Positions 516 through 46,624 of a stretch of DNA of 64,000 bases are shown here, in pieces. The position numbers and the translations under genes are program-made. Position 1 is the stretch's first letter, and every line of letters starts with the position of its first letter. Where the stretch lies: the NCBI RefSeq assembly GCF_037392515.1, contig NC_090295.1, positions 13,535,001 to 13,599,000 of the forward strand, in the 5' to 3' direction. The notes under the pieces are model-generated. The model saw only the letters and a program-made list of their open reading frames with translations, was not told where the DNA came from and did no database searches. Source of the stretch: Haliotis asinina (taxonomy: Eukaryota; Mollusca; Gastropoda; Lepetellida; Haliotidae).

Positions 516-1166
516 ATTTAGCACACAAAGCAACCGGAAACACAGTTCGTTTGATAAATGATTGCGGATATTAGTATATAATATATATACTGTGGCCCCA
601 AGATGGAAAATGTTAAGATGAGCACATCATCACCTCCCATCATACCCAACCTAGAAATTTAACATCATGTTTATGATCAACGATGGTCAAACGGTTTAGC
701 CTCTCATCAAGCTCATGGCGGAGGTGCGACGTGATGAGTTTTTTAACGGGATAACGTGGTGTTTTCACGTGAAGAGGCGAAGAGGCCGAGACTGTAACAG
801 AAGTAGAAGCAGTACAATGTAAATGCAATGACAATGAAATAGAATCATGCATCATTAATGACTAATTAAAAGAACAAGGAATGCAAAATCAAAGACAGTA
901 TATCAAGTCGTGTAAGTTTAAGAAATGTGTTTTGTTGGTTGATATCAATGAATTGTAGAGCAGGTCATTACCAACCGATAACTTTCAGCAGACGGTCATA
1001 CAGAGTGTCCCTGTATGAGGCCACCTTAATCTCCACACCACTGGTGTAACCACATGACCTTACACAGCTTTGGTCACGAGTGGATTATGGAAGCTGTGTA
1101 TGTAGTGATAGCGCAGGATTTTCAAAAGGGGTGATTGTCATGGTGACGTTTATGTGGATGTACTGG

Positions 1167-1174
1167 TATAAATA
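1167..1174 (+). promoter_or_regulatory. TATA box of the HG-peptide gene
   Basis: TATAAATA lies 78 bp before the start codon. The same box sits at the same distance in the duplicated copy at 7644-7651, inside a block of about 300 bp that is strongly conserved between the two copies. Confidence 0.75.
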
Positions 1175-1251
1175 TGACACTTGAAAAACAATTAACATCA
1201 TTCAACCAGAGTCACTCACAAGACATTCTTCTCTTTGTTTTATCAAGAACC

Positions 1252-1688
1252 ATGAAGTATTTCAGTGTGACTCTTCTTGTGGCACTGGGTAAGTGATTCA
1301 GAAAAGTTTACTATTTAATGTTTCTCGTTACAGATGGATGTGGTTTCTGTGCGGAGAATTTGATATTCTCGAAATAATTCCTCCTGTTTATTGCTTTTCA
1401 GCTGCAGTGGTGTGTTTGTCAATGGTTGAATGTCATGGACACGGACACGGTCACCATGGTCACGGACATGGTCACCATGGACACGGTCACGGGCACCATG
1501 GACACGGGCATGGACATGGTCACGGACATGGACATGGTCACCACGGACACGGTCACCATGGACACGGGCACGGTCACCATGGTCACGGACATGGTCACCA
1601 TGGACATGGACATGGGCACCACGGACACGGTCACCATGGACACGGGCATGGTCACGGCCATGGTCATGGTCACGGGCACCATGGTTGA
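1252..1688 (+). CDS. Secreted histidine-glycine repeat peptide, 107 aa, two exons (1252-1288, 1402-1688)
   Basis: Exon 1 is 37 bp and encodes MKYFSVTLLVAL, ending in phase 1 at a GTAAGT donor. Exon 2 starts after TTTTCAG and gives AAVVCLSMVEC, completing a signal peptide of about 23 residues. The remaining 84 residues are only His and Gly, in blocks such as HGHGHGHH, up to a TGA stop. His codons (CAC, CAT) and Gly codons (GGA, GGT, GGG, rarely GGC) are mixed, so the repeat looks kept at protein level rather than freshly slipped. A TATA box lies upstream and AATAAA 55 bp after the stop. A second CAG 6 bp into exon 2 could remove two residues. His-rich secreted proteins often bind Zn, Cu or Ni, and some are antimicrobial or structural. 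The role here is unknown. Long open frames on the opposite strand are shadows of the repeat. Confidence 0.85.
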
Positions 1689-1742
1689 GGGAAATCTGTC
1701 GAGTGTCCTTCTTGGTATCGGTCAGTTTGTAGCAATATTTAG

Positions 1743-1748
1743 AATAAA
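1743..1748 (+). terminator. Polyadenylation signal of the HG-peptide gene
   Basis: AATAAA 55 bp after the stop codon. The equivalent signal in the second copy is at 7901-7906. Confidence 0.65.
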
Positions 1749-1790
1749 TCAAACATACATCATCATTTGTTTTCCTTGACCTTTCTGAAT

Positions 1791-2184
1791 TTTAGGGAAA
1801 CTGTACCAACAGACTATTTGCTGACATCACCTAAATGTTTGCAACATCTCACTGATCTACGAATAAGGGAATTCTCACCACTATTGTCAGATGTCCATTG
1901 CCCACTTGTCCTCAGCCTGAAAATTTATGAAGATTTATCAAAATCGGTGCACTATGTACCGAGTAACATTGCTTGGAACTCGGGAAAAGATAACTTTTTT
2001 TAACTTGTACACCAAAAACCTGCCCATGAAAATCAGCGTCTCTCGAGCAAGAAATACTATGTATTTCACTTGAAAACACCCGATCGGTGAAAAAGCAAAA
2101 CCTTTCCATAATCGCTAGATTTTCCGCTTTCGTTCTACAACGTCTCAAATGAAATAGGTAATTCAGTTACCTGCAATACTATAG
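1791..2184. other. Spacer with no feature seen
   Basis: About 390 bp between the HG-peptide gene and a hairpin element. Short open frames occur on both strands but none has splice signals, a signal peptide or a recognisable domain. Confidence 0.5.
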
Positions 2185-2319
2185 AATTATAGACTGGTGA
2201 TGAGGTCAATACCTGTTTTTATGGACCCGCGAAAAGCAATATTGACTTCGTCCTCGGTCAATATTGCTTTTCGCGGGTACATAAAAACAGGTATTGACCG
2301 AATTCACCAGTCTATAATT
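2185..2319. repeat. Hairpin (fold-back) element, about 60 bp arms
   Basis: The left arm begins AATTATAGACTGGTGA and the right arm ends TCACCAGTCTATAATT. The inner parts (GGTCAATACCTGTTTTTATG and its complement, GACCCGCGAAAAGCAATATT and its complement) also pair, leaving a loop of about 10 bp near 2245. This is a near-perfect palindrome with the shape of a MITE. It lies 130 bp beyond the stop of the recombinase gene. Confidence 0.8.
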
Positions 2320-2450
2320 GTTTTATTATGTAATTACAGAAAATGAACTTCTAAAAACCAAAACATAATCATTCAGTCAAGAAAAGTAATTTTATTTCCA
2401 CTACAAACCAATAACCTTACGTCAACAATACTGTGAATACAAAGCTCATT

Positions 2451-4121
2451 TTACTGGTGTTGGTAGAAATTGTAGTTAATAGTAACATTGCAGCCATGCA
2501 TTACAGGTCCGGGCATTCGGGTCAAGCAGTTATGTACCATGCTGCTCTGCATCTGCACATTAGGCTTAATTGCAGAGTCAGTAGTTTCATGAACATCAAT
2601 TGTTTCCAGAAGTCTGTCAAAGTCAACATCATTCAGGAAGTTATTGATATCATCAACAGGCGCGGCAGCATCACAGGTTTTCTCAGCTATGGTTGCTGAC
2701 ATTTTCTTCTTGGCTTTCTCATCAGTGTAGCCAGTGTATGTTTTTAGGCTGGACTCAGACTTATGTCCAGTCACGGTCATAATATGGCGGGAAGGGACCT
2801 GAGCTGCGTCCAAGACGTGAACAGTTGTCGCTCTCAGTGAGTGATTAGTATATTTCATGGAGAGCCCTGCCTTGATGCTCAGATTTGGCATCATTGAACC
2901 GATACGGTTGTGGCCAAGGGCAATGGGATAATAGTGCTGGTTATATTCCATCTTCGTGTTCGGTTGTTGGAACAACTTTGGGCAGTTTTTATTCAGAAGT
3001 CTTATGTACTTCACATAAGAACGGACTGGGCATCTTGTATTGTCTGTAAAAGAATGAATAAATTGTTTGAATAAAAGTGCATAATAATGTAACATTTTAT
3101 GGATTTGAACCTTTGAGCAAGCTTTTATCAAAACTTAAAACAGCCGAAGGAAATTGAATGAGAGTGACGTCCCTTGATATTTGTAGTCACGGTTGCCTCG
3201 CCAGCGTCATTTGTTGTAACTGTGGTATGTATCCTTTCAGTGTTTACAATCATATTGGCTTACATTCAAAATAATGTGTTCAATAAAATTGCATACCTTT
3301 CTTCTCATACATCCTCCCTCTAGCACGGTCTCCGTCATCTTGATGGTTCTTAGTCTGTTCGTCCGTGCACATGTAAACAAACATGTCTCCCTCAGCGTCC
3401 GTGGTAACCGCTAGGTCTGTTACCCTTAGTGCTGCCAGGTTCTCTCTCCCTCTCCTTCCAAAGTGAAGCATTATATCCAGGAACACCTGATCGTCAAATA
3501 TTAGGTCTAATTAATGGATTTATAGAATCATGATTGATCAATATTGATACTCATTAAAATTGTAAATACATTGAAGTGTAGTGCATCAAAAACATTTTGA
3601 TTACATAACGATTTTTGTATTTGTCTATTCACCTTGTATTGTAGAAATACGGGACTGTCATCACTGCAAACGTAGTCGTACAGTTTAATCAGATCTGCGT
3701 CGGCTATGGGGGCATGATGATTTACTTCGCCGAATCCAGTGCGCTTCAATTCTTTTCCCATCGCCTTGAAAGTCTTGCTTGATGTCTTGAAATCTGCGCC
3801 TCGTATTATGTCAATGTCAGGTCTTGTTTTTTCGATGTACCTCTGTATTCCATGTCTGTAGGCCATGAGCGTTGATTTTTTGTATTTTTCTCCTTTTTCG
3901 GTCCTTGCTTCTAGGTAAAACTCTGATAAAATAGCGTCAAGATCTTCAGGGGTGAGATTTTCAAATTCGATAGTTTTGCCCTTTTGGCTCAGGTATTCCC
4001 TTAAAACACGTATCGCCGTTGAAGTGGCCTTCTTTGTGTTTTTGGCTTCAACATTTTCCAAAATAATCGTTTTTTCAGTATCCGAAAGTTCCGCAAAACG
4101 AGTTTGTTTACTTTCTGTCAT
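2451..4121 (-). CDS. Crypton-type tyrosine recombinase (DUF3504 family), three exons, apparently intact, 423 aa
   Basis: The exons on the minus strand are 4121-3633, 3486-3297 and 3043-2451, with CAAG|GTGAAT and AAAG|GTATGC donors and CAG acceptors. Phases 0 and 1 match and no stop interrupts. The first real ATG is at 4121 (MTESKQTRFAEL); the open frame extends further upstream only from a TTG. Residues 1-163 form the N-terminal DNA-binding half. The catalytic half shows an Arg in GRRGRENLAALR (about 173-184), HSLR (294-297), GHKS with His320, and Tyr329 in LKTYTGY as the likely nucleophile. This is the C-terminal domain shared by Cryptons and the vertebrate KIAA1958, QRICH1 and ZMYM2-like proteins, where many copies no longer recombine. 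The acidic tail after the catalytic domain is not recognised. Whether it is a live element or a host gene cannot be told from one copy. Confidence 0.82.
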
Positions 4122-4199
4122 CTCAGCTTTACGAATGAAGCGTATCGGGAATTCCGTCAAGCAAAGCTATCTCATTGGTTGAATCATAGGGAAGTCCTC

Positions 4200-4570
4200 A
4201 TCCGGGTCTCTCAAAATCTATTTTTAGTAACTCAAGTCAATACGAATATTGGTCGGACCTGGGTTGGAGTCAATATGCTTTTCTGTCGACGGTCACGTGA
4301 CCGCCTCTGGACCAATCAAATAGCCAGGAAAATGTGCGTACATAATAAACGACTTTATTGGGAAATTAGCGGCATCGAGTGATCGAGTCCACCATGTTTG
4401 TCCTTCACCCTTCACCCTCAATAGGCTTGCATCAACGACGAGCTGCTCTCTGATTGGTAAAAAATCCACCAGTATTATTTTTATTTCGTGGGGCGATATA
4501 TCGTGTTGGTGCAAGCAAGACCCATTTTTAACCCAAGTCAGTTTCGAGAATAGTCGGACCTCTCAAAAAT
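4200..4570. other. Upstream flank of the recombinase, with a short degenerate direct repeat
   Basis: About 4203-4262 and 4521-4563 share a pattern like 'ACTCAAGTCAATACGA-ATA-TCGGACC' next to a CTCAAAA motif. It may be an element end or a regulatory repeat. No exon is seen here. Confidence 0.35.
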
Positions 4571-4734
4571 GGCGAATCTTCTCAAATCCAAAAGAACACA
4601 CTTTATGAAACTTAGAAAAATATGTTAGAATTGGTTTCCAAAAGGCTCCAAATAAGATCTAATTTGTAATAATTACGTATTTAGCTGAGAAAACATAAAC
4701 GGATTAAGCATCAATGAACGTTGAGACCCGGGTC

Positions 4735-4915
4735 AAGTACAGATGAAGACATCACCCGATTTACAAGAATTTCCTGTTGATGTAACCCCTACAAACATCC
4801 AGTTTATGACGTCAAAGCCAAATAATAGACTCAAACATCTTAATGAGTTCCATGGGGCTTTAGTCAAAGCAGTGTCTGCTGCTGCCACAAGACGACGGCT
4901 CCGAGAACAGTCTCG
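4735..4915 (+). repeat. Dispersed coding-like repeat, copy 1 (pairs with 8580-8760)
   Basis: This stretch aligns with 8580-8760. One frame reads SPDLQEFPVD ... TSKPNNRLKHLNEFHGAL, and the other copy gives PPELLAFPG ... TSKPEKVSK before breaking. The shared protein-like reading suggests both derive from a once-coding repeat. The family is not recognised. Confidence 0.55.
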
Positions 4916-4954
4916 ACCTGAAAATACGACAATCAGATGGATCTACGAACATCA

Positions 4955-5292
4955 GTGATGACCCGGATGTGGAACGGCATGACCAAAGGGCTAATTCACA
5001 AATCTCATTATAACGGCTTGACAGTTGGGGAAAATACAACAATCTCATCATCACGGCATGACCATAGGGGCTATTCACCAAGGTCGTCATGGCACGACCA
5101 TAACGACTATTCACCAATCTCATCATCACTACATGACCACAGGAGCCCATTCACCAAGTTTCTCATGGCATGATCATAAGGACTATTCACCAATCTCATC
5201 ATAACTACATGACCACTGGGGCTATTCACCAAGTTTCTCATGGCATGACCACAGCGACTATTCACCAATCTCATCATCACTGGGGCTATTCA
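4955..5292. repeat. Minisatellite, ATTCACCAATCTCATCATCAC / CATGACCA units
   Basis: Repeats of about 33-45 bp built from 'GACTATTCACCAATCTCAT' and 'CATGACCACAGGGGC'. The motif (TATTCACCAA, TCATAAGGA) is similar in style to the array at 145-515. It is not coding. Confidence 0.7.
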
Positions 5293-5314
5293 CGAAAGTC
5301 ATCAAGACGGGATC

Positions 5315-5463
5315 AATGGAATAGCCAAGTGGTTAAGGCCCTCTCTCATCACGTTGAGGAACAGGGTTCGATTCCCAATATTGGGTCGAGTCCGTTTCTG
5401 GTGTCCCCGTTCGTGATATTGACGGAATATTGCGAAAAGAGTCGAAAACCAGTTCACTCACAG
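5315..5463 (+). repeat. tRNA-derived SINE
   Basis: The A-box-like 'ATAGCCAAGTGGTTAAGG' and B-box-like 'GGTTCGATTCCC' are followed by a GTGATATTG-ACGGAATATTGC core and a CACTCACAG tail. This is the common gastropod SINE of this window. Confidence 0.8.
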
Positions 5464-6026
5464 TTCAACAAGGCAAGGTGCATGCGCTTAATTGCACAAG
5501 GACCTATGTTTCTATGTCGGATGCTGTGTTTCAAACATGTGGAAAGGGCAGTCCAGGGAATACACAACGGAGTCACTTTGCTGTGTCCAGGAACGATAAA
5601 AAGGATCAGAGTCACAAAGGCTTGTTTGAGTGATAATGGTGGGAAACACTTAATCTAAACAATACATGTTTTCACAGACTGGCGTTTTAAGTTTCTAGGA
5701 AGAAAATATGATCACATTTGGGTGTCTGAGATGAAGAAACCTGTCAAATCCAGGTAACACTCACTCCACTTGTTCCCTACCTAAATGCTGTATTTGTTCC
5801 CCCAACCCTCACGCAGCGATCGCGCAAACGTGTGGTACTTCGAGGTGTTTACAAGAGAGTGAGTATGATCTGATTTACGCCGCCGTTTTGAGGAATATTC
5901 AAGCAGTTCACTATAAGGAATCGAAAACGTGCATGTGTTCCTCTGAGGGTAGTGGCTATAATGGGTACACGATTATATCCTCGTGTCCTAGGCTGATCTC
6001 CTTTAAGCACAGGCCTATTATCTTCG
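5464..6026. other. Spacer with no feature seen
   Basis: No splice-supported exon, repeat or domain was recognised. Confidence 0.4.
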
Positions 6027-6167
6027 AGGCAAATACCCACTGACTAGTAATGTACTATATCATTACCTTATTAAGGCAAATATCCACTGACTAGTAATGT
6101 ACTATATCATTACCTTATTAAGGCAAATATCCACTGACTAGTAATGTACTATATCATTACCTTATCC
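6027..6167. repeat. Tandem triplication of a 47 bp unit
   Basis: Three nearly identical units start at 6027, 6074 and 6121 with AGGCAAATA[C/T]CCACTGACTA. The near identity points to recent expansion. Confidence 0.9.
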
Positions 6168-6232
6168 AGTCATTCTTACTGATACAACATACTTGAAAAA
6201 CATGAAAGAAGGCCACAAGTAGATTCTTGATT

Positions 6233-6238
6233 TTTATT
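6233..6238 (-). terminator. Possible polyadenylation signal of the 45-aa HG-peptide gene
   Basis: AATAAA on the minus strand about 300 bp after the stop codon. It is the first such signal noticed. Confidence 0.4.
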
Positions 6239-6533
6239 GTCCAACATGTTTCCCAGAAAACCCAGCTTTTACTGAAAATGAAAAAAATACACACATACAA
6301 CAAAGAGAAATTATATTAGGCAATGTTGCTTCAACCGGGTTTAATTCTGCAGAAAGGAATGTGCTAAGTTCACAAACTGGTGATAACGTTTCAATATCGG
6401 AAGTGACAGTAACAGAATATCGCCCAAGCTCAATGCATTCACAAAGGACTCAGCCCAAATACCATGTTCAAGTAATTGTATTGATACCACTTATTTTTGA
6501 AGGTAATGCCTTACATGTGGTAATGGTTTCTTC

Positions 6534-7036
6534 CTATCCATGGTGACCATGTCCGTGCCCATGCCCGTGTGCATGGTGACCATGTCCATGCCCGTGTCCA
6601 TGGGCATCAGAGTAGCTTACCGCATAAAGCCATCCTGAAACAAACAGGAAGCCCTTTTATACATGATTCACGGACAATTTTAATGTTATGTGCATACTGC
6701 GATACAAATGGGAAATTTGGAAATTTGTACAGCCTTAACAGTAGTAGACATGGAAAACAGAGACATATTGACATTCCCACTATGAAAACATACGCAAGAG
6801 CTAATTAATGCTTCATGTTTTACCACAATGTTTGTTTTTACTCCGCTTTCATCAGTATATTCAGGCAAACCATATGAGGCACAAGACAATGGTCTTTACA
6901 CTTTGTACCTATATGTGTATCGAAAACGAGTGATCAGTGTGACTAACCACTAGGCTACACCACCGACCAGGTTGGTTAAATAGAAAATTATTCACTCACC
7001 AACAACGACAAATAGGAGAACTGTAAAATATTTCAT
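6534..7036 (-). CDS. Very small secreted HG peptide, 45 aa, two exons (7036-7000, 6634-6534)
   Basis: Exon 1 on the minus strand is 37 bp, the same length and phase as in the 107-aa gene, and encodes MKYFTVLLFVVV before a GTGAGT donor. Exon 2 follows TTTCAG and gives GWLYAVSYSDA, completing a signal peptide of 23 residues. The mature part is 22 residues of only His and Gly plus one Ala in the middle: two similar halves of HGHG...HH joined by that Ala, then G and a TAG stop. A TATATAT box lies about 62 bp upstream. The gene diverges from the repeat-less copy at 7729, with the two start codons about 690 bp apart. It is a clear paralogue of the 107-aa gene in exon plan and signal start (MKYF), with a far shorter repeat. 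A metal-binding or antimicrobial role is plausible but only inference. Confidence 0.75.
6930..6968 (-). repeat. SINE head fragment inside the intron
   Basis: 'TAACCACTAGGCTAC' is the reverse complement of the SINE A-box region. Only this piece is present. Confidence 0.5.
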
Positions 7037-7097
7037 CTTCGATATTACGTCTTTTGCAATGTTTAGTGTAGTGTCTGTCTTCTGATTCACACCCTGG

Positions 7098-7104
7098 TAT
7101 ATAT
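7098..7104 (-). promoter_or_regulatory. TATA box of the 45-aa HG-peptide gene
   Basis: TATATAT about 62 bp upstream of the ATG on the minus strand. The duplicated block shared with the first locus starts about 40 bp further upstream. Confidence 0.55.
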
Positions 7105-7139
7105 GGATGACATAACACCAAAGTCACGATGATCACGAG

Positions 7140-7950
7140 AAACTTAACATCACATTTATGATCAACGTTGGTTAAATATTTAAGGCTCTCGCCAAGCTTA
7201 CAGCGAAAGTACGTGGTGATAAGCTTCTTAAGGGATAAAGTGTTTTTTTCACGTGAAGAGGTCGTTCCTGTAACACCAATATAAGCAATGCAATCTAAAT
7301 ACAATAATGATAGCGAAACAGAATCACGTATCATTGATGATTACAACATGAGATGCAAAACCTACAGACATATCATACATCATAAGAAAGAAATATGCTT
7401 TGTTGGCCTATGTATTGAATGGATCGTAGAGCAGTACAGTCCTTACCAGTCAATAAGTGACCGCAAACGGTCATTCACAGTGTCCCTGCATGAGGCCACC
7501 TTAATCTCCACACCACTGGTGTAAGCACACGACCTCACACAGCTTTGGTCACGAGTGGATTATGGGAGCCCCGTGTAGATGGTGGTGGTGCATGATTTCC
7601 AGAAGGGCTGACACTCATGGTGACGTCTATGTGGATTTACTGGTATAAATATGACCCGAGAAAAACAGTTAATATCATTCGACTTGTGTCACTCATAAGA
7701 CATCCTTTACTTTGTTTTGTCCAGAACCATGAGGTATTTTAGCGTGACTCTTCTTGTGGCACTGGGTAAGTGATACAGGCATTTTTACAGCTTAATGTTT
7801 CTCATTAACTGTGCAAATGATCTCAAAATATTTCCTCGTTTATTGTTTTTTTTGCAGCTGCAATGGCGCATCTGTCAATAGTTGAATGTCATGGACATAT
7901 AATAAACAAACCATCGTCATTTGTCTTTCTTGATATTTTTCAGTCTCTCA
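7140..7950 (+). repeat. Duplicated gene block, copy 2 (pairs with 653-1790)
   Basis: Same-orientation copy of 653-1790, diverged but readily aligned. The best-kept stretch runs from about 7465 to 7790: the GTGTCCCTGCATGAGGCCACC motif area, CACACCACTGGTGTAA, GGTCACGAGTGGATTATGG, the TATA box and exon 1. Confidence 0.8.
7644..7651 (+). promoter_or_regulatory. TATA box of the repeat-less HG copy
   Basis: TATAAATA 78 bp before the ATG, matching 1167-1174 in spacing and context. Confidence 0.65.
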
Positions 7951-7979
7951 TTTTTCGACCCGTGAAGGTCCCAGGGTAG
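7729..7979 (+). pseudogene. HG-peptide gene copy that has lost its repeat (exons 7729-7765, 7858-7979)
   Basis: Exon 1 encodes MRYFSVTLLVAL and ends at the same GTAAGT donor. Exon 2 starts after TTTGCAG with AAMAHLSIVECHGH. Directly after CATGGACAT the sequence becomes the 3' untranslated part of the intact copy (ATAATAAAC...), so the HG array and stop codon were removed in one deletion. Reading continues about 29 residues through former 3' UTR into a SINE and stops at 7977-7979, giving 52 aa. The polyadenylation signal AATAAA (7901-7906) now lies inside this frame, so a normal transcript would probably lack a stop codon. Promoter, signal peptide and splice sites look intact, so it may still be transcribed. 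Confidence 0.75.
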
Positions 7980-8217
7980 AATAGGCATTCAGCAACCCAC
8001 GCTTGCCATAAAGGTTACTATGCTTGTCGTAAGAGGCGACTAACGTTATCGGGTGGTCAGGCTCGCTGACTTGGTTAACACATCGGTTCCCAATTGCACA
8101 GATCGATGCTCATGTTGTTGATTACTAGATTGCCTGGTCCAGACTCGACTATTTATAGAGCGACGCCATATAGTTGGAATATTGCTGAGTGTGGCGGAAA
8201 ACTAAACTCACTCACTC
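7957..8217 (-). repeat. Gastropod core SINE (non-tRNA family), near full length
   Basis: Read on the minus strand it has the GAGTGAGTGAG tail motif, 'CTATATGGCG', 'GAGTCTGGACCAG', 'CATGAGCATCGATCTG', 'GACCACCCGAT' and 'CGCCTCTTACGACAAGCAT'. Copies with the same order occur at 46228-46501 and elsewhere in the window. Confidence 0.85.
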
Positions 8218-8579
8218 TAATTATTCCGGAAAGCGTTAGCAGCAGACACACGACATGGTCGTTGTATATCCAACGTGTAAGGGCGTCCAATAGAGCTGTA
8301 GGTTCACCCGTGTATATGTCAGGGTTGTTAATCATTCTTTGAGTCAGGTTGGGAAATTTGCTCAGGTTACTGTTTCTAATCATTTCTCTTAAAGATGCAA
8401 CTCAACACATTTTCGCAAATCGTTAAACAACGCATATCTCACAAACATGTTTGAATGTGAATACCCTGAATAAACAACATATCTAACATCCGCTTTCTTG
8501 AACCAAATGTTTTGTTCCAAACATCCCCAGCAACAAGAATAATAAACTGATTTGTGAATCAGTTGTCATCGACATGGCG

Positions 8580-8760
8580 GACAAGTACAGGTGAAGGCAC
8601 CACCCGAGTTACTGGCATTTCCAGGTAGGGAAACCTCACGAAACATCGCATTTACGACATCAAAGCCAGAGAAGGTCTCCAAGATCTGAACGAATTCCAC
8701 GGAGCCTAAAAGGCAAGGTAACGCATACTCCTGCGAGAAGACGACTCCCTGTAAGGCCAT
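8580..8760 (+). repeat. Dispersed coding-like repeat, copy 2
   Basis: Partner of 4735-4915. Its protein-like frame breaks at a stop after TSKPEKVSKI. Confidence 0.55.
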
Positions 8761-15349: not shown

Positions 15350-16030
15350 ACGTAGGCCGGCGACACATTCGCCTACGAAGGCGATACTTTCATTCACGCA
15401 GGCGAATCGTAGGTCGGTGACACATTCACCTACGAAGGCGAAAGTTTCATCCACGTAGGCGATACTGTCATTCCAACAGGCGATACTTTCTTCCATGCAG
15501 GCGATACTTTCATCCAAGTAGGCGATGATTTCATCCAAGTAGGCGATGATTTCATCCACGCAGGTTTTTTTAATTCACACAGGCGATACTTTCATTGACA
15601 AAGGCGATACTTTCAACCACATAGGCGATACTTTCATTCACACAGGCCATACTTTCATCCACGTAGGAGATACTTTCATCCGCACAGGCGATACTTTCAT
15701 TCTCAAAGGCAATACTTTCATCCAAGTAGTCAATACTTTCATTCACAGAGGAGAAACTTTCATCCAAGTAGGCGATACTATCATTCACACAGTTGACACT
15801 GTCATTCACACGGGCGAAACTTTGATCCACGTAAGGCAATGCTTTCATTCACACAGGCAATACTTTCATCCACATAGGCAATACTTTTATCCACACAGGC
15901 ATACTTTCATCCAAGAAGGCGATACTTTCATTCACGTAGGAGATACTGTCATTCACACAGGCCATACTTTCATCCACGCAGGCGATACTTTCATTCACGT
16001 AGGAGATACTTTCATTCACACAGGCCATAT
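15350..16030. repeat. Minisatellite, 24 bp unit GGCGATACTTTCATCCACGT(A)
   Basis: About 28 units of 24 bp. Because 24 is a multiple of three and the unit lacks stops in several frames, long open frames appear on both strands (GDTFIHTG on +, ACVNESIA on -). The copies drift, including non-multiple-of-three changes early in the array. No start exon, signal peptide or splice site ties it to a gene, so I treat it as non-coding. Confidence 0.85.
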
Positions 16031-16712
16031 TATGAGTGACACTGAATATATAAACGTTATGCTTTACGTTTAGGAACAATGTTCATTTAAAAAATGAATT
16101 ACCGATCACTAGAGCCCACAGAACTGTTAAGCTGTTCATTGTGTAACAGGCTGTAGTCACCTTCCAATGGTGGGAATGACAAAAACAGAAGCCTGTATAT
16201 CGGGTAAACTGCATTGGTCATGGTCGGTCATCATACATGACGCGACGCACCTCAGCAAGACCACAACGATTGCCCCGAGTAGAAGGTGGCGATCCTCTAC
16301 CAAGTCACAGTTGGGGCTCCAGTATTACCTATGTATGTAAACAAATTTGAAATTTATGAGAATATTAAATATACAGTTTTGATAAGATGTTAAAATTTGA
16401 ACATTTGATCAAACGTATTACACAGAAAAAGGACCACTTCTGGTTTTCAACAGTGATATTGCTGGAACATTGCTAAGAAAGCAGCGACATTATGTATCTA
16501 ACATAGCAATAAAAATGAAAAGATATACTTTGTTCAGATTTATACAGTTGACCAAATGTTTTACACAAACAGGCGCACTTGTGGTAACATTGTTATTTTA
16601 TTGCTAAAAGGCGGTGCAAAACATAATATGTTCTCACAGAAAAACCCATACTGATCCATTACAAACCAACGCAGCATGCTGTGACCGTCACGCCGAGTGT
16701 TCCTGCTTCCTG

Positions 16713-17850
16713 CAGCCCCTCTATCCGCTCTAGGGGATAGCGGCTCTATCCGCTCTAGGGGATGTAGCGGCTCTATCTGCTCTAGGGAATGTAGCCCCTC
16801 TATCCGCTCTAGGGGACGTAGCGGCTCTATCCGCTCTAGGGGATGTAGCCCCTCTATCCGCTCTACGGTATGTAGTCCCTCTATCCGCTCTAGGGAATGT
16901 AGCCCCTCTGTCCGATCTAGGAGATATAGCCCCTCTATCCGCTCTAGGGGGTGTAGCGGCTCTATCCGATCTAGGGGATGTAGCCCCTCTATCCGATCTA
17001 GGGGATGTAGCCCCTCTATCCGCTCTAGGGAATGTAGCCCCTCTATCCGATCTAGGGGATGTAGCCCCTCTATCCGATCTAGGGGATGTAGCGGCTCTAT
17101 CCGCTCTAGGGGATGTAGCGGCTCTATCCGCTCTAGGGGATGTAGCGGCTCTATCCGCTCTAGGGGATGTAGCGGCTCTATCCGATCTAGGGGATGTAGC
17201 GGATCTATCCGATCTAGGGGATGTAACCACTCTGTCCGCTCTAGGGGATGTAGTCCCTCTATCCGATCTAGGGAATGTAGCCCCTCTGTCCGATCTAGGA
17301 GATATAGCCCCTCTATCCGCTCTAGGGGATGTAGCGGATCAATCCGATCTAGGGGATGTAGCGGATCTATCCGATCTAGGGGATGTAACCACTCTGTCCG
17401 CTCTAGGGGATGTAGCGGTTCTATCCGCTCTAGGGAATGTAGCCCCTCTATACGATCTAGGGGATGTAGCTCCTCTATCCGCTCTAGGGGATGTAGCGGC
17501 TCTATCCGCTCTAGGGGATGTAGCGGCTCTATCCGATCTAGGAGATGTAGCCCCTCTATCCGCTCTAGGGGATGTAGCGGCTCTATCCGCTCTAGGGGAT
17601 GTAGCGGCTCTATCTGCTCTAGGGAATGTAGCCCCTCTATCCGCTCTAGGGGATGTAGCGGATCTATCCGCTCTAGGGGATGTAGCCCCTCTATCCGCTC
17701 TAGGGGATGTAGAGGGGTCTATCCGCTCTAGGGGATGTAGCGGCTCTATCCGCTCTAGGGGATGTAGCCCCTCTATCCGCTCTAGGGGATGTAGCCCCTC
17801 TGTCCACTCTAGGGGATGTAGCCCCTCTGTCCGCTCTAGGGGATGTAGCG
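16713..17850. repeat. Minisatellite, 27 bp unit GATGTAGCGGCTCTATCCGC TCTAGGG, about 42 copies
   Basis: A 27 bp unit alternates between variants (AGCGGC or AGCCCC; CCGCTC or CCGATC). The frames read SGSIRSRGC on + and PRADRAATS on -, both open over more than 160 codons. Variants occur in blocks (such as CNHSVRSRGC groups), which suggests multi-unit duplication. Local GC is well above that of the surroundings. No promoter or splice evidence supports translation. Confidence 0.88.
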
Positions 17851-26600: not shown

Positions 26601-29600
26601 GATGGAATATGGTTTTACGTCGTTTTTGTAACATCCCGGCAAAATCACGGCGTGGGACATGAAAAATGGATTTCACACATTCTACCACGTGAGGAACCGA
26701 AACCAGATCTTCGGCGTGATGAGCGAACCACCAGGCTACTCCTATTTTTTGTATGAAGAACTAGAGCTTTAACAAACAGACCGCCCCAGTAATGCTGTAC
26801 GGTACCTGGTAACTGGTATATCGGACGAAGTGTATGATTAAATAACAAAGATTAAATACACTATGACAGAAGCACAATAGAATTCATTTCTTGTGTCAGT
26901 GGTGCTGCAGATTAATGCTCTTGTCATAATATCACAAGGGGGAAATTGTGTAAAATCTCTTTATTGCATAAATTACAGTCATGTGTAAGTTGTTGATTGC
27001 ATCATGTGTACACATATCCCCCTCCACATCCGACCTGATGCTTAGCTATGGACAGAGGCATCATGCCATAAAACAAGCAATTAAATAGAAATAACAACGA
27101 TTCTGATATGACCGTGTTATCGTTATCAGGCCTGTGTTCATACAATGGCTATACATGTACTAACTTTTAACCTTAATCATTCTGGGAAATATTTCACAAT
27201 AACTAATCCCTATATACTATTTGGTATTGTCAAATCCTCACAAAATAATGTCCTAAATGTGTTATGGGTTGTGGTATTGGAATCTATCGAGGAAATTTAA
27301 AGATGAGTGTACATTTTAGCTGAAGTTATATACACGTTTTCAAGCACGCGTAATTTAATCAGTTGAAATTTCAAGCATATAAAGTGACATTAGAAGTTTA
27401 GAATTGTTAAAAATTCTGAAAATCTTAAATTCCAAACAGCGACAAAATTGAAGTACAGGTGTTTATTTGACAAATGAATGCTATTTTCAGTGAAAATACA
27501 TTTCAAGTTTATTTCCATAGCATAATCAACCACTGACACTCCATGGAATAGTAATGAAATTGAATTTATCAAACAGTGTTCCGAGTCATTGTCATTCAGA
27601 TGTGTCCGATTCCCATCGTGTTATACATTCGGAAAATTCCGATCCCACTCGTCACTTCTTATGGCTCCGGTAATCCGCCGACCTGCTCCGAATGTCAAAG
27701 AAGACGGTGAATTCCTATGCAGCACCACCTGCAGCGGCCTGCGCCTCTGCTGCAGCGGCTTGTCTTTCAGCCTGCGCCATTCGCGCCTTCATCTGCTGCA
27801 CCTGTGTCATCTGCTGATTGAACGCTGGAAACACGACATAATGATACATACCAAGCAGAGAATACATACAAAAAGGCCAATCAGGGAATGTGTCTGTCTA
27901 AATTTCCCCTTACATAGAGCACCAGGGTGGTTGACTGGTTGTTGTTTTCCGCCGTATTAAGCGATGTTTCAGCTGTATTTCGGCGGTCTGTACATAAACG
28001 AGTCTGAACCAGATAATCCAGTAATCGAGCATGAGCATTGATTGAACTGGGATACGATAAGATATGTCAACCAAGTTTTCGAGCCTGACCACCCGATCCC
28101 GTCAGTCGCCGTTTAGGATAAGCATTGGTTGCTGAAGATCTTTATACGGATCTCCACGTGTCGAACACCAGGTCAGTCTACAATTCCCAGAATAGGGAAT
28201 CCTAGATCATATCTGTCTACACCCTGTCCATTCTTTAGCATGGAGCGATTTCAAACAGTCCCTAAACACATTTTGGGTACCTACATAACTGGAGGCCTTG
28301 AAAGACTTGGTATTTTTTCAAGTATGTCCCTGTGTGCATTGATTCATCCATTTGGACAAACTGTGAAAGGTTCGGACACTCACCGAACATCTTAATCTCT
28401 TTGTTTTGTTTTCATTATACTTAGTTCTCCTAGAAAGTTTGTATATTTCATACAAGAGGGCATATACTCATTTGATACTTTGATTTACATTGGGATTAGT
28501 TGGGAGCATATAATGTTAAACCGTTGCTGTTTCATGATCTCTAGATGTTATCCAAGAACACCAATCAGGAATATCTCAAATGTTTTATGCGTATGTTTTT
28601 CAAGCTGGGAGAACAGTATAAAATGGTAGCGCTAGAGAATAATAACCATATCTGCTATATAATATATAATATAAACATTTCTGGTTGGACAGAATTCAAT
28701 GGATGAATGTCTGTAAACCATATGTCCACGACAAGGGGTATCAACGCATATTCCGCTCCACTGATAGCACCTCCTGTTTGTACAATTTGCATAAGAACGT
28801 TTTCGTTTTTGCTGATACGGCACAGCCTCAGTCTTTTATAGATAACCACTGTTTTATTGTTTCTATCGAGGGTACAGGGCATCGTCTTCCGTGAATGTCA
28901 ACGCTAATGACTAGAGATAAATGTAGCATAGAGGCCACTATGTTTTTCCCATAAGGTATTATTTGTGTGAAAGTGATCGATGTTCTTGGCTCAATTACAT
29001 GACATGTGTTAGCATGGCCATATATCTTTCCTAACCGGAAGTCACGTTATTCTAAGTTCATGACCGCTGGTGAATTATGGGAGACTATGTAGAGTACAAA
29101 TCCAGGTGATGGTGATAGAGAAAGTTGTAAGCTCATTTCGTGACCAGTTTGATATTTTGCTTGCCAAAAAGGAATCATAAAATATGTCAGATGTCAACGA
29201 AAATAACACAAAACGCCGTCCCACATCATTCCTATTAAGAGAAAGCCATTATGACATCCCTTAATGGCGGCAATTGAGAACGATGGGGTGTACGTATATT
29301 CCTTTCAAAATGAATAAAACGACAGGAATCTGACAGGATTATATTTACCTTATTATCATATGCCAAGAAAATACCCTCCGGATAGTTATGGAATATATTA
29401 AAAGTAAATTGTGTTCAGATAAAGACTGCTGTATTCAAATCTGCAGACCCAAACTGGCATTGCTGACACAGTCCCTGTGTGCATAGCCTAAAACCATTCA
29501 CTTAGCTTTGCAGAAATTAAGAAATAGGTCGACAGACACTTTTCTAGGTCACAAGTAAACGGGAATGCTTGGACGAGTAAGTTTTAAGGTCATTAGGAAA

Positions 29601-32600: not shown

Positions 32601-35600
32601 GTCCCATCACTGATTGTACAGTGTGCAGGTAGTACCTTTCGCTAGTTAATTTATGTTCAGTCTGGAACCGGGCCCTTCAGATATTCGAGACACAGTTATA
32701 AACGGCGTAAACGTTTTGAATTCAGATTAAGTCACCTTCAGTCAATGCTTGTATTAAGAGACGACCCAAATCAGACCGATGTTCCTGTCATTGTTTTTCA
32801 TGGTCAGCGTTCGCAAGTAGCCGTGATATGTATAGAGTCAAAAAAGAAACTTCACAAAATGTAATTTTTAAAAATAATGAATATTTTTTTCTGATAATAC
32901 ATCTATGTATCCGAAATGGGCTCCTTGTCTTTCGACATTAGCAAAACCCACTGAAACCCATCCATTCGCCGTGCAAATGACGTTGGTGCCAAATCAGGTT
33001 TTGCACGTGCAATCGATCACGTGATCTTCGCATCGACGTTTTCTTCATTTGCACGTGTTCGCACTGGCTTCAAGAACTCATAAAACACTTTTAAACAACA
33101 GTTCTAACTGTACTTTAAATGCCACGATTGTCAAATGTGCAACGTGAACGTGCCTTGGCATGTTGCAAACGGGAAGATCAGTTATTGACGCCGCAAGAGC
33201 AATGGAATGCAGCCGTCGTACTGTGTATGACAGGCGAGGTCGTCTACAACAAACTGGCACCACTTCTGATTCCCGACTTCTGGTCATCCGTTGAAACCTC
33301 ACAGCTGTTACTTACCGCTACCAGGTGCTCAACCCTGGACTCGTTCCTTTCATGGCGGTTCATGGCACAGGTTTACAGCTCCAGCATGATAATGCTCGAC
33401 CGCATACCGCGATGTCGACACGAAATTCCCTTCAAAATTCTGGAATCAACGTCATGGACTGGCCATCGAGGTCCCCTGACCTGAATCCTATAGAGCACGT
33501 TTGGGAAGCATTTGGGAGAAGGCTTCGTGGTCTTAGGAACCAACCTCAGAATTTGGAGGAACTTGACGCTGCCTTGCAAGAGCAATGGCACAGAATCCCC
33601 AACCACGTGTTCACAAACATCAGGCAGTCGATGAGGAGACGGTGTTTGGCAGTGGTGAATGCGTGGGGCGGCCATACACAATATTGAACTGAGATATTTC
33701 GAATTTTTATTCTTGTGACTTGTGGAACGGGTGTGTAGCCTAATGGAACTAATTGTGTCACTGTCAGTATATCGAGTACATCAGACAGATCTCAGCAACG
33801 AAATAATAACAATTTAACCATCTTACCATCTCTTGTTCTTTTATAGTACCCTGAAGAAAGAATGTGAAGTTTCTTTTTTGACTCAGTAAAGCTGGAAAAA
33901 TGCCAGATCTTACTCTGAAACACATTGCATATCACGTCATTTACCACATGTGACCTGGAACATGTATATAATATTCCTCTGAACTCTTTGTCCAGTGACT
34001 TTGTCCAGCCATTTGGAGGAAAATGAGAGAGTTGAGTTTTACGCCACTGTCACCAATATTTCAGAAATTACACGGCAGACACCAGAATAGGGCTTCACAC
34101 ACTGAACCCATGTGGTACATGGAACTAGGGTGTTCTGAGTGACAAATAAACGCTATGCCCTCCCCTCCCCTTAATTCACATAGAGGTCAAGGTTTAGAAT
34201 TAGGTTAATGTTGAATACAGTCCCAAACGTGAACATATGGGTGTATACTCTCATCACAAGTCTGGGGGCAGTGGGGTAGCTCAGTGGTTAAAGTGTTCGC
34301 TCGTCAATCCGCAGACCCGGGTTCGATTCCTCAATGGGTCCATGCGTAAAGCCCATTTGCGGAGTTTCGCAATCCGTTATATTCTTTGCTAAACGCGCCG
34401 TAAAGCCTCACTCACTCATCACAAATTAGGAGACTAAAGTGTATAATCAAGCAGCGTCTGGAACCAACATTTTCAGCAAATAACAAAAGAATTGGAATGG
34501 CGGGCGATATGGTTGTATGACTTACACGAAAACAATCTTCTCCGACTTCATTGCCCCTTCACTTGGGAACCAGATGAAGGCGGCGCTCTTTCTCTGTCTT
34601 GGTCCGTAACGGCGAAGGTTGGGATCGTTCGGGTACCGCATTCTGTAAACTTCAAGATGGCGCTCTTCCACACTCCCTACAGCGTCATAACCCTGAGCTC
34701 CGCGGTTACACCTGAATCCGACACCTCCAGCCGCGTAATACGGGTAGATAGAAAACACACCCACTGGCCTCCATGGGGCTCCAGCTTCAGAGTTGGCAAG
34801 GGCAGGCTCTGCGTAGATGACGAAGTCGGTGAAGTTTTCGAAACTGTAAATGGAGTTCTCCCACTGGTGGATACGCACTGAAAAAAAGATTAACTTGCGT
34901 TACAGTTTAAATGAGGCCATAAAAAGCAAATACAATGTCTTTTTTCCACAGTTGTCATTTAAAACATGCGTGTTGAGCGATTAGGGTGTTTGGTTGTATT
35001 TTGTAATGATGGTACGAATGTCAGGATCGTTTAGATGGATATTGCAAAAAGATTGATCTATCCTTCTGTAGACAAAATTCCATGCTTTGTCTTACGGAGA
35101 TTGAAACTATTAGATTGCTTCAATGACAAAAACTTCGAACGGGTATCATTATACAAGGCATATCTTCACGCTTTTTCCTCCCCAAAACGAATTTCCTCAA
35201 TTTAAAACTCGTGGAGATCAGGGTTAGAAACGGTCGTCAGCAACCCATGCTTGTAAGAGGCGACTAACGGGATTGGATGGTCCATGACTTGATTAATACT
35301 TGTCATCGAATCCCAACTGCTTAGATTGATGCCCATACTGTTGATCACATGATTGTCTGTTCCAGACTCGTTTTGTATGGACCGTCGCCATATAGCTGGA
35401 ATATGGCTGAGTGTGGCCAACTAACCAACCAGCCTTAGCGTAAAAACCACAACATAGTTTTTGGTCAAATGTTACCTATAAAAGCTTGCAAACCCACGCG
35501 AAAATGTACAACCACGCGCAATTGTACAACCACGCACAATTGTACAACCACGCATACAGTGTCTGGTGACCCTGCTCACACAAGTCTATATATACTCTAC

Positions 35601-37758: not shown

Positions 37759-37795
37759 TTTGAAAGTAGACAACGAATCACGGAAAAAATGCCTT

Positions 37796-37801
37796 CTTAT
37801 A
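37796..37801 (-). promoter_or_regulatory. TATA-like box of the Reeler-like gene
   Basis: TATAAG on the minus strand 38 bp upstream of the ATG, implying a 5' untranslated region of only about 10-15 bases if it is used. Confidence 0.5.
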
Positions 37802-38714
37802 CCCTCAGCTCTATCTGCCTCTTCTAAGCCACGCCTACCATCACTCATATGCAAATGAGACAGCCCATGGACAAAACTGGCCTTTGTTTTGTCCTCTGAC
37901 CGGAGCACGAGTAAAATTACTATTACCGTGGTGCTAATCAATCACTCCTATCGACGTCAACGTCTTTCTGACGTGCATTATCCAAGGCAATTAGCTGGAC
38001 GGTGCATGTTATCTTATTCTGCCCCTTGTTGTATACTATGGGTGAGCATCTTAATCCATCGTATTTGTTATGTAAGAGTACAACATGCAGCGATTAATGT
38101 GAATGTCATGGTTATATGAAATAATGAAGTTGTGACTTCAGTCACTGTAAGTCTGTTGCCTGACCTCAGCATCTATGGGCAGGTTTTGCATAATGCAGAG
38201 TGTTCGACACAGGCTGATCTGTACTAACACAGAGGTAAAGTGTCCACGTGGTCAAGATGAGCGCCTTGGGCTAAGCCTATATTTTTACCGTAGCATAAGA
38301 AGGTAAGGAGAGGAAGATGGCATCTTGCTCAGTCAAGTGTCTTGTCATGTACTTTCAGATACGTATACGTACAGCATTCATTGCGGTTAACGTATGTCCG
38401 TGATGCGTATCTATAAATACACCTCTTTTTATGAGATAAGGACCCAAACGTGAATAAATGATTTTAAAGAAATAGGTTGATAAATGTATGTGATTTTTTT
38501 AGTGATAGAGTGATGGCATATACAAGCATTTTCTGTCTTTTGATTTTGGAAAGAGCCTGTCGCTTTCTTACTGTGTCAATGCTCTTGGTGTCCCCATTGC
38601 AAAGATTCTGTTGCTTTTAATCCTAGATGATTTGGTTGTCCATACATTATTTGCACTCTACTATTATGTACGGAAACGGAGTATGCCTACAGTGGATTTT
38701 TTTTGTCTCATTAT
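37802..38714. other. Upstream region of the Reeler-like gene
   Basis: Promoter side of the gene. Apart from the TATA-like box I see no recognisable element or exon. Confidence 0.35.
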
Positions 38715-42631: not shown

Positions 42632-42885
42632 GAAGATTCGGGTTAGAACTGATTTCACTAACCCATGCTTGTTGTAATAGGCGACTATCGGGAGCGGGTG
42701 GTCATGCTCGCTGGCTTGGTTGACGCGCGTCATCGAATCCCAATTGCTCAGAACGATGCTCATGCCATTGATCACTGGATTGTCTTATCCAGACACGGAT
42801 TAATTACAGACCGCCGCCCAATAGCTGGGCTAGTGATGGGTGTGGCGTTAAACCAGCCAACCAACCATGGTAGACAAGTGGAGGA
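42632..42885 (-). repeat. Core SINE (non-tRNA family)
   Basis: Reverse copy: 'AACCCATGCTTGTTGTAATA', 'GAGCGGGTGGTCATGCTCGC', 'GATGCTCATGCCATTGATCA' and 'CCGCCGCCCAATAGCTGG'. Confidence 0.8.
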
Positions 42886-46227: not shown

Positions 46228-46501
46228 CAGCTATATGGTTGAGTGAGTTAAGTTTTACGCCGCACTCAGCAATATTCCAGCTATATGGCGGCGGTCTGTA
46301 AATAATCGAGCCTGGACCAGTCAATCCAGTGATCAACAACATGAGCATCGATCTTCGCATCTGGGAACCGATGACATGTGTCAACCAAGTCAGCGAGCAT
46401 GACCACCCGATCCCGTTAGTCGCCTCTTACGACAAGCATTGTCGCCTTTTATGACAAGGATGGGTTGCTGAAGGCCTATTCTACCCCGGGACCTTCACGG
46501 G
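46228..46501 (+). repeat. Core SINE (non-tRNA family), best copy in the window
   Basis: 'GAGTGAGTTAAGTTTTACGC', 'GCTATATGGCGGCGGTCTGT', 'GATCAACAACATGAGCATCG', 'GACCACCCGATCCCGTTAGT' and 'CCCGGGACCTTCACGGGT'. A second partial copy, 46502-46612, follows directly. Confidence 0.9.
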
Positions 46502-46624
46502 TCCAGCTATATGGCGCTGGATACGAATACGTGTCAGCCAAGTCAGCGAATTTCTTACGACAAGAATAGTTTATCCATCTCTAACCCTGACTTTGACGGG
46601 TGGACTATCACTACATTATATTCT

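What the first reader, a model, noticed from the sequence alone, without database searches (positions are those of the whole stretch)
653..7979. A cluster of tiny secreted histidine-glycine peptide genes built on one exon plan
Seen: three loci have a 37 bp first exon with M[K/R]YF starts (VTLLVAL, TVLLFVVV), phase-1 donors, and a second exon that finishes the signal peptide and opens with HGHG. The mature parts are 84 residues of pure His/Gly, 22 residues of His/Gly plus one Ala, or nothing. Known: His-rich secreted peptides elsewhere bind Zn/Cu/Ni, act as antimicrobials or harden structures. Inference: a lineage-specific peptide family with rapid change in repeat length.
Basis: partly seen in the sequence, partly recalled or inferred. 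Interest (0 to 1): 0.78.

Follow-up and report, generated by a model that had tools for sequence, protein, structure and literature searches.

The report
Two secreted histidine-glycine peptide genes
Two small animal genes, and the wreck of a third, appear to make secreted peptides built almost only of histidine and glycine, which most likely grab metal ions outside the cell; the chemistry has known parallels, but the animal's use of it is unproven.

Summary
Gene A (1252-1288 + 1402-1688, +) encodes a 23-residue signal peptide and 84 residues of pure His/Gly (47 H, 37 G). Gene B (7036-7000 + 6634-6534, -) encodes a 23-residue signal peptide and 22 residues (12 H, 9 G, 1 A). In A's repeat, 15 of 15 mismatches between aligned halves fall at codon position 3 and both gaps are whole codons, so the protein sequence looks conserved. 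A and C lie in an apparent tandem duplication. B shares exon plan and signal length with A, but sequence similarity is weak and confined to exon 1. Best mechanism, inferred: a secreted, disordered, pH-switching metal-binding peptide; HGHGHGH is also the four-His stretch of the plant IRT1 loop, which binds Zn2+ at 33 nM. No animal genomes or RNA data were available, so expression, sister species and 'rapid repeat change' are untested. The kind is known; this is an extreme two-letter member.

The parts
1252..1288 (+). Gene A exon 1 (37 bp, MKYFSVTLLVAL + 1 nt, phase-1 donor GTAAGT)
1402..1688 (+). Gene A exon 2 coding part: end of signal peptide 1402-1433, mature His/Gly 1434-1685, stop 1686-1688
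1743..1748 (+). Gene A AATAAA poly-A signal
1167..1174 (+). Gene A TATA-like element TATAAATA, 78-85 nt upstream of the ATG
   Evidence: read from sequence
7000..7036 (-). Gene B exon 1 (37 bp, MKYFTVLLFVVV + 1 nt, phase-1 donor GTGAGT)
6534..6634 (-). Gene B exon 2 coding part: end of signal peptide, mature HGHGHGHGHHAHGHGHGHGHHG at 6602-6537, stop 6536-6534
6233..6238 (-). Gene B candidate AATAAA (an ATTAAA also starts at 6345)
7098..7104 (-). Gene B TATA-like element
   Evidence: read from sequence
7729..7765 (+). Pseudogene C exon 1 (34 of 37 nt identical to A), donor GTAAGT intact
7858..7979 (+).
7957..8214 (.). Dispersed SINE-like repeat (87% to 46240-46503 in inverse orientation, weaker pieces elsewhere) that holds C's in-frame stop
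653..1441 (+). Duplicated segment, A copy (75% to 7138-7897)
7138..7897 (+). Duplicated segment, C copy
4731..4896 (+). Probable downstream continuation of the A copy of the duplication (70% to 8579-8745, same order and orientation)
8579..8745 (+). Probable downstream continuation of the C copy
1001..1100 (+). Upstream block 93 of 100 identical between A and C, with the near-palindrome ACACCACTGGTGT at 1035 (C copy at 7510); candidate cis-regulatory module

Best explanation
A and B are small secreted-peptide genes whose mature products are disordered metal-binding chains. Shown: gene anatomy; a coding constraint that keeps His and Gly while third positions vary; A's chain split by HH into 10 H-to-H blocks of 5, 7 or 15 residues plus a terminal HG, 6 of the 10 being HGHGHGH, with 36 HGH motifs, 10 HH and no GG; loss of the third copy by deletion. 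Inferred: after signal removal the peptide has no acidic, aromatic or (besides His) basic residue. At about pH 5.5, as in secretory granules, A would carry roughly +36 to +43; at pH 8.1 almost nothing (about +0.4 to +1.2). It would therefore stay soluble in the granule, and outside it would lose charge and take up Zn2+ and Cu2+ through the imidazoles, each four-His block holding about one ion, bridging chains or sequestering metal. The predicted N-terminus H-G-H also fits the XXH (ATCUN) copper/nickel site (recalled). The most likely use is loading or cross-linking metal in an extracellular material or mucus of the animal, or buffering metal there; which of these is not decided.
For: Anatomy. 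Constraint: the best gapped alignment of the two halves of A's repeat gives 15 mismatches, 0 at position 1, 0 at position 2, 15 at position 3, with 40 sites each, and both gaps of 3 nt; two further overlapping splits give 6 of 6 and 6 of 6. At the 37 His-to-Gly junctions the silent CpG change is common (20 CAT, 17 CAC), while a G-to-A change at the Gly first position is never seen. B's two units differ at five sites, four at position 3 and one at position 2, the Ala. Charge model; block structure. Chemistry: the Arabidopsis IRT1 loop with PHGHGHGHGP binds Zn2+ at 33 nM (1:1 assumed) and Mn2+ at 114 nM, lost when the four His are changed (PMC12203963 passages). Shepherin I, a Gly/His-rich peptide, binds Zn(II) and then forms antifungal fibrils (PMC10698721 abstract). 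His/Gly-rich secreted Nai11527 was identified in the zinc-rich tip of Nereis jaws (PMC13120676 passages).
Against: No metal, expression or tissue datum exists for these loci. The only metal-response-like core (TGCRCNC, motif recalled) in the first 8 kb is inside B's repeat, none in a promoter. 15 mismatches within one repeat array are not independent if units were copied from each other; ungapped self-comparisons at lags of 46 and 48 codons do show position-1 and -2 differences (6, 6, 23 and 4, 4, 20), which are H-for-G swaps. In IRT1 an aspartate, absent here, also contributes to binding. B carries one Ala and is only 22 residues. No Pfam family matched A or B above cut-off, no NCBIfam family matched either, and no solved structure matched A.
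Confidence: 0.55

Rival explanations
1. An antimicrobial peptide, active when its histidines are charged at acid pH or when zinc makes it assemble, made in haemocytes or epithelium.
For: Shepherin I shows fibrils and strong anticandidal activity only as its Zn(II) complex (PMC10698721 abstract). A palmitoylated 13-residue Gly/His peptide kills S. aureus, and the authors attribute loss of activity of several such peptides at neutral pH to their histidines (PMC6399351 passages). Signal peptide plus short linear mature part fits a peptide effector.
Against: At marine or haemolymph pH the peptide is nearly uncharged and has no hydrophobic face. In the table seen, the palmitoylated Gly/His peptide has the same LD90 at pH 5.5 and 7.0, so its activity may owe much to the lipid. 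An 84-residue two-letter chain is long for such a peptide (judgement). No haemocyte expression is known.
Confidence: 0.2
2. A structural coacervate-forming polymer of shell, radula, jaw, operculum, periostracum or egg capsule, in which metal is incidental.
For: Short repetitive low-complexity sequences are a conserved feature of molluscan shell proteomes (PMC6003135 passages). A Gly/Ser-rich radular protein with a His-rich region is known in a chiton (PMC6351634 passages).
Against: The structural proteins seen in those passages are chemically mixed; a pure H/G chain lacks the Tyr, Cys or Lys used for covalent cross-linking. No proteomic evidence, though the mature peptide has no K, R, D, E, C, W, Y, F, M or L and would escape ordinary trypsin-based proteomics.
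Confidence: 0.15
3. Not functional peptides: a minisatellite that happens to be open in frame behind a signal peptide.
For: Tandem arrays abound in this window (61 rows), one with a long fortuitous ORF (16697-17731). Pseudogene C shows that copies decay.
Against: Third-position-only divergence and whole-codon gaps. Two copies without shared flanks have matching splice phase, signal length and stop after HHG.
Confidence: 0.07

Closest known systems
Arabidopsis IRT1 regulatory loop (PHGHGHGHGP)
   Same: Same alternating His-Gly block with four His in a disordered chain; nanomolar Zn2+ and Mn2+ binding measured (PMC12203963, passages seen)
   Different: A short cytosolic loop of a transporter, not a whole secreted peptide; an aspartate also contributes
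Shepherin I (Capsella bursa-pastoris)
   Same: Gly/His-rich peptide; Zn(II) binding (PMC10698721, abstract and outline seen)
   Different: Plant peptide; its sequence was not compared here, and no homology is claimed
Nereid jaw proteins Nvjp-1 and Nai11527
   Same: Rich in Gly and His (Nai11527 with a signal peptide), tied to zinc in a hard tool (PMC13120676, abstract and passages seen)
   Different: Partial Nai11527 is about 53 kDa with 29% Gly and 16% His, mixed composition; no homology shown
Mytilus EP-like histidine-rich proteins
   Same: Molluscan, found in the shell, His-rich (PMC4517812, passages seen)
   Different: Carry a C1q domain and 14.3% His; here there is no known domain and 47 of 84 mature residues are His
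METTL9 substrates such as SLC30A1 GHGHSHGGHGHGHG
   Same: Dense HxH motifs with small x, the METTL9 recognition motif (PMC13027442, abstract and passages seen)
   Different: Membrane transporters, not free peptides; methylation here is only predicted

Membership tests
Secreted His/Gly-rich metal-binding peptides (a kind, not a homologous family) | Signal peptide and a short mature part dominated by His and Gly | tested here: met
   A 84 of 84, B 21 of 22 residues H or G; signal peptide judged by eye, no predictor run
Secreted His/Gly-rich metal-binding peptides (a kind, not a homologous family) | Binds Zn2+ or Cu2+ | not testable with these tools
   Only analogy to IRT1 and shepherin I
One homologous family A-B-C | Sequence homology of A and C beyond the repeat | tested here: met
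   75% over 806 columns, E 7e-151; co-linear downstream piece
One homologous family A-B-C | Sequence homology of A and B beyond the repeat | tested here: inconclusive
   Exon 1 p 0.017-0.028 by codon shuffle, 0 of 5000 by nucleotide shuffle; upstream, intron, 3'UTR and exon-2 signal part not significant
One homologous family A-B-C | C encodes a complete peptide | tested here: not met
   First in-frame stop only at 7977-7979, in a repeat and downstream of AATAAA at 7901
Any Pfam-A or NCBIfam family, or PDB relative | Profile or sequence match above cut-off | tested here: not met
   Pfam: none for A at E 0.1, Chorion_3 at 13.6 bits against a cut-off of 22 for B; NCBIfam 0 for both; PDB 0 at E 1 for A, B not searched
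METTL9 substrate | HxH motifs with small x in a disordered region | tested here: met
   A: 36 HGH, 46 of 47 His lie in an HxH; disorder assumed from composition. The review warns that the motif is often not sufficient
METTL9 substrate | 1-methylhistidine present | not testable with these tools
   Needs mass spectrometry

The most novel reading that the evidence does not exclude
A is a free, secreted HxH polymer that passes the ER as a multi-site substrate of the histidine methyltransferase METTL9, whose methylation sets how much zinc or copper the released peptide can hold: a tunable extracellular metal sponge made of two amino acids.
Probability: 0.1. Interest if true: 0.7.

Novelty: new member of a known kind. 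Interest (0 to 1): 0.42.

Why it matters
A protein made of two amino acids is about the simplest natural metal-binding polymer one could study, and such genes are easy to miss: low-complexity filters can mask them in sequence searches (general knowledge), and the mature chain has no site for trypsin or the other usual proteases (composition). If expressed, A and B would give a natural series (84 and 22 residues) for testing how His/Gly length sets metal capacity and phase behaviour, and a searchable gene plan for other molluscs.

Tried and rejected
Third peptide gene at C: rejected as a deletion pseudogene. Promoter metal-response elements: none of the TGCRCNC type upstream of A, B or C in the first 8 kb; 19 matches in the whole window. 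Relatives: 592 stretches in the prokaryote genome collection and 87 in the viral contigs matched a back-translated pattern, but none passed tblastn confirmation; I give this no weight, because low-complexity filtering may hide such matches (my inference) and neither collection is meant to hold animals. No Rfam match in the window at gathering scores. Literature: all 10 searches used. 'HGHGHGHG' is in 4 papers and 'GHGHGH' in 8 of the 5.39 million held; by their titles none concerns a mollusc (not all were opened). Haliotis + 'histidine-rich' gave 21 papers, 20 listed, no gene of this kind by title. Supplementary files could not be searched, so an earlier listing of these genes is not excluded. 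The codon lines printed at the end were shifted by one codon and are replaced. The global alignment did not place C's 3' end; the local alignment did. No structure prediction was run: a pure H/G chain would give no meaningful model. All nucleotide shuffles were mononucleotide shuffles.
Full report
What was checked. The first 9 kb were read directly and the three loci re-derived by script. Gene A: exon 1 at 1252-1288, GTAAGTGA donor, acceptor ...TTTTCAG, exon 2 from 1402, stop at 1686-1688; protein of 107 residues, the last 84 being 47 His and 37 Gly. Gene B, on the minus strand: exon 1 at 7036-7000, exon 2 from 6634, mature HGHGHGHGHHAHGHGHGHGHHG. TATA-like elements lie upstream of each ATG (read) and AATAAA signals downstream. 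Nothing else in the window reaches 14 of 20 H/G with four His in any frame.

Is it coding? The long repeat could be a minisatellite. Aligning its two halves, with nothing forcing the frame, gives 15 mismatches over 40 sites of each codon position: 0, 0 and 15; the two gaps are each one codon. Under equal rates the chance is about (1/3)^15, or 7e-8 (hand calculation), an overstatement if units are copied from each other. Ungapped self-comparisons at lags of 46 and 48 codons do show differences at positions 1 and 2 (6 and 6, 4 and 4, against 23 and 20 at position 3); since each of the 84 codons is His or Gly, these are H-for-G swaps from shifted register. At the 37 His-to-Gly junctions a CpG arises when His is CAC; its silent decay product CAT is found 20 times, a changed Gly first base never. 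The chain has 10 HH and no GG, and splits at HH into blocks of 7, 7, 7, 15, 5, 7, 7, 7, 5, 15 and 2 residues. B's two 11-residue units differ at five sites, four of them silent.

The third locus. Segments 653-1441 and 7138-7897 are 75% identical, and a piece further downstream repeats in the same order and orientation (4731-4896 against 8579-8745, 70%; no other copy in the window at E 0.01; score 89 against a maximum of 27 in 300 shuffles). I infer a tandem duplication later interrupted by a recombinase-like element in the A copy and a short dispersed repeat in the C copy. C keeps its promoter-side sequence, both splice sites and signal peptide (34 of 37 and 34 of 40 nt; three silent and five replaced codons). 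After HGH, however, it jumps to the sequence around A's poly-A signal (local score 38; maximum of 500 shuffles 32). The AATAAA at 7901 predicts RNA cleavage near 7917-7937, before the first in-frame stop at 7977-7979, which itself lies in the dispersed repeat beginning at 7957.

Is B a sister of A? Exon 1 is identical at 22 of 37 nt, which none of 5000 nucleotide shuffles reached; with M and K held fixed and B's codons shuffled the support falls to p 0.017 (amino acids, 5 of 10) and p 0.028 (nucleotides, 16 of 30). Exon length, phase, signal length and the terminal HHG agree. The exon-2 signal part, upstream 100 bp, intron and 3'UTR show no significant similarity (p 0.77, 0.33, 0.12, 0.58). 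Old common descent is likelier than convergence in my judgement, but not shown.

A side observation: of the seven stretches of the A/C alignment that I compared, the best kept is a 100-bp block at 1001-1100 (93 of 100), about as well kept as exon 1 (34 of 37) and better than the distal upstream part (251 of 321 aligned), the TATA-to-ATG part (70 of 85), the intron (73 of 88 aligned, 25 gapped) and the exon-2 signal part (34 of 40). It holds the near-palindrome ACACCACTGGTGT. It may be the regulatory module; in the C copy it lies between B and C, which are head to head, and might serve B.

How it would work. The mature chain has no K, R, D, E, C, W, Y, F, M or L. A Henderson-Hasselbalch sum with pKa 6.0-6.5 gives about +36 to +43 at pH 5.5 and +0.4 to +1.2 at pH 8.1. 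The same four-His alternating block occurs in the IRT1 loop, which binds Zn2+ at 33 nM (1:1 assumed) and Mn2+ at 114 nM, fails without the four His, and is helped by an aspartate that is absent here (PMC12203963, passages). Shepherin I binds Zn(II) and forms antifungal fibrils (PMC10698721, abstract and outline only). Zinc-bearing nereid jaw tips hold a Gly/His-rich protein with a signal peptide (PMC13120676, abstract and passages). From these I infer metal uptake on secretion as the primary property, and leave open whether it serves a material, a buffer or defence. HxH with a small middle residue is the METTL9 motif; GHGHSHGGHGHGHG of SLC30A1 is methylated in vitro, methylation lowers zinc binding in substrates tested, and METTL9 seems active in the ER among other compartments; but the same review says that the motif is often not sufficient and that long HxH tracts would rarely be methylated completely (PMC13027442, abstract and passages). 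46 of A's 47 His lie in an HxH, so A would be an extreme substrate if it meets the enzyme. This is a prediction only.

Limits. No genome of the organism is held, no animal collection was on hand, and no expression data were available. Absence of such peptides from abalone shell proteomics would say little: without trypsin sites they are invisible to the usual method, and the one occurrence of 'histidine' in the main text of the H. laevigata shell paper is in a reference title (PMC6003135). The kind of molecule is known; a mature peptide of only two amino acids is an unusual form of it. That I found no earlier report rests and on a library without most subscription journals; automatic annotation of such genes in public genomes could not be looked up.

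Noticed in passing
2185-4160: Tyrosine-recombinase-like element on the minus strand between A and B: ORF 3528-4160 matches QRICH1 (E 3e-6) and ORF 2451-3131 matches Phage_integrase (E 6.9e-5), both below Pfam cut-offs, beside a 136-column self-inverted repeat at 2185-2319; resembles a Crypton (recalled).
   Followed up: partly
7957-8214; also 46240-46503, 42665-42853, 35247-35417, 27944-28125: Dispersed short repeat, SINE-like, with ACTCACTCACTC at the end of the copy at 7957, several copies in 64 kb; this copy supplies the false stop of pseudogene C.
   Followed up: partly
1001-1100 and the matching C block around 7510: Upstream block kept at 93% between a gene and its dead copy, higher than the coding exon-2 part; possible shared regulatory module that may now serve gene B.
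   Followed up: partly
16714-17849: 27-bp minisatellite of about 42 copies; ORFs of 344 codons on + (Ser/Arg/Gly/Cys repeat, 16697-17731) and 166 codons on -.
   Followed up: no
15436-16029: 21-bp tandem array, about 28 copies, 76% matches, overlapped by an ORF of 175 codons.
   Followed up: no
53315-54574: Minus-strand ORF of 419 aa, histidine phosphatase branch 2 (Pfam E 2.5e-30).
   Followed up: no
37528-37941: Minus-strand ORF with a signal-peptide-like stretch (from MASLNRVLAGVLLALCVCVGVDSQ, judged by eye) and no Pfam match at E 0.1.
   Followed up: no
56134-56783: 113-bp tandem array, 5.8 copies at 95%, looks recent.
   Followed up: no
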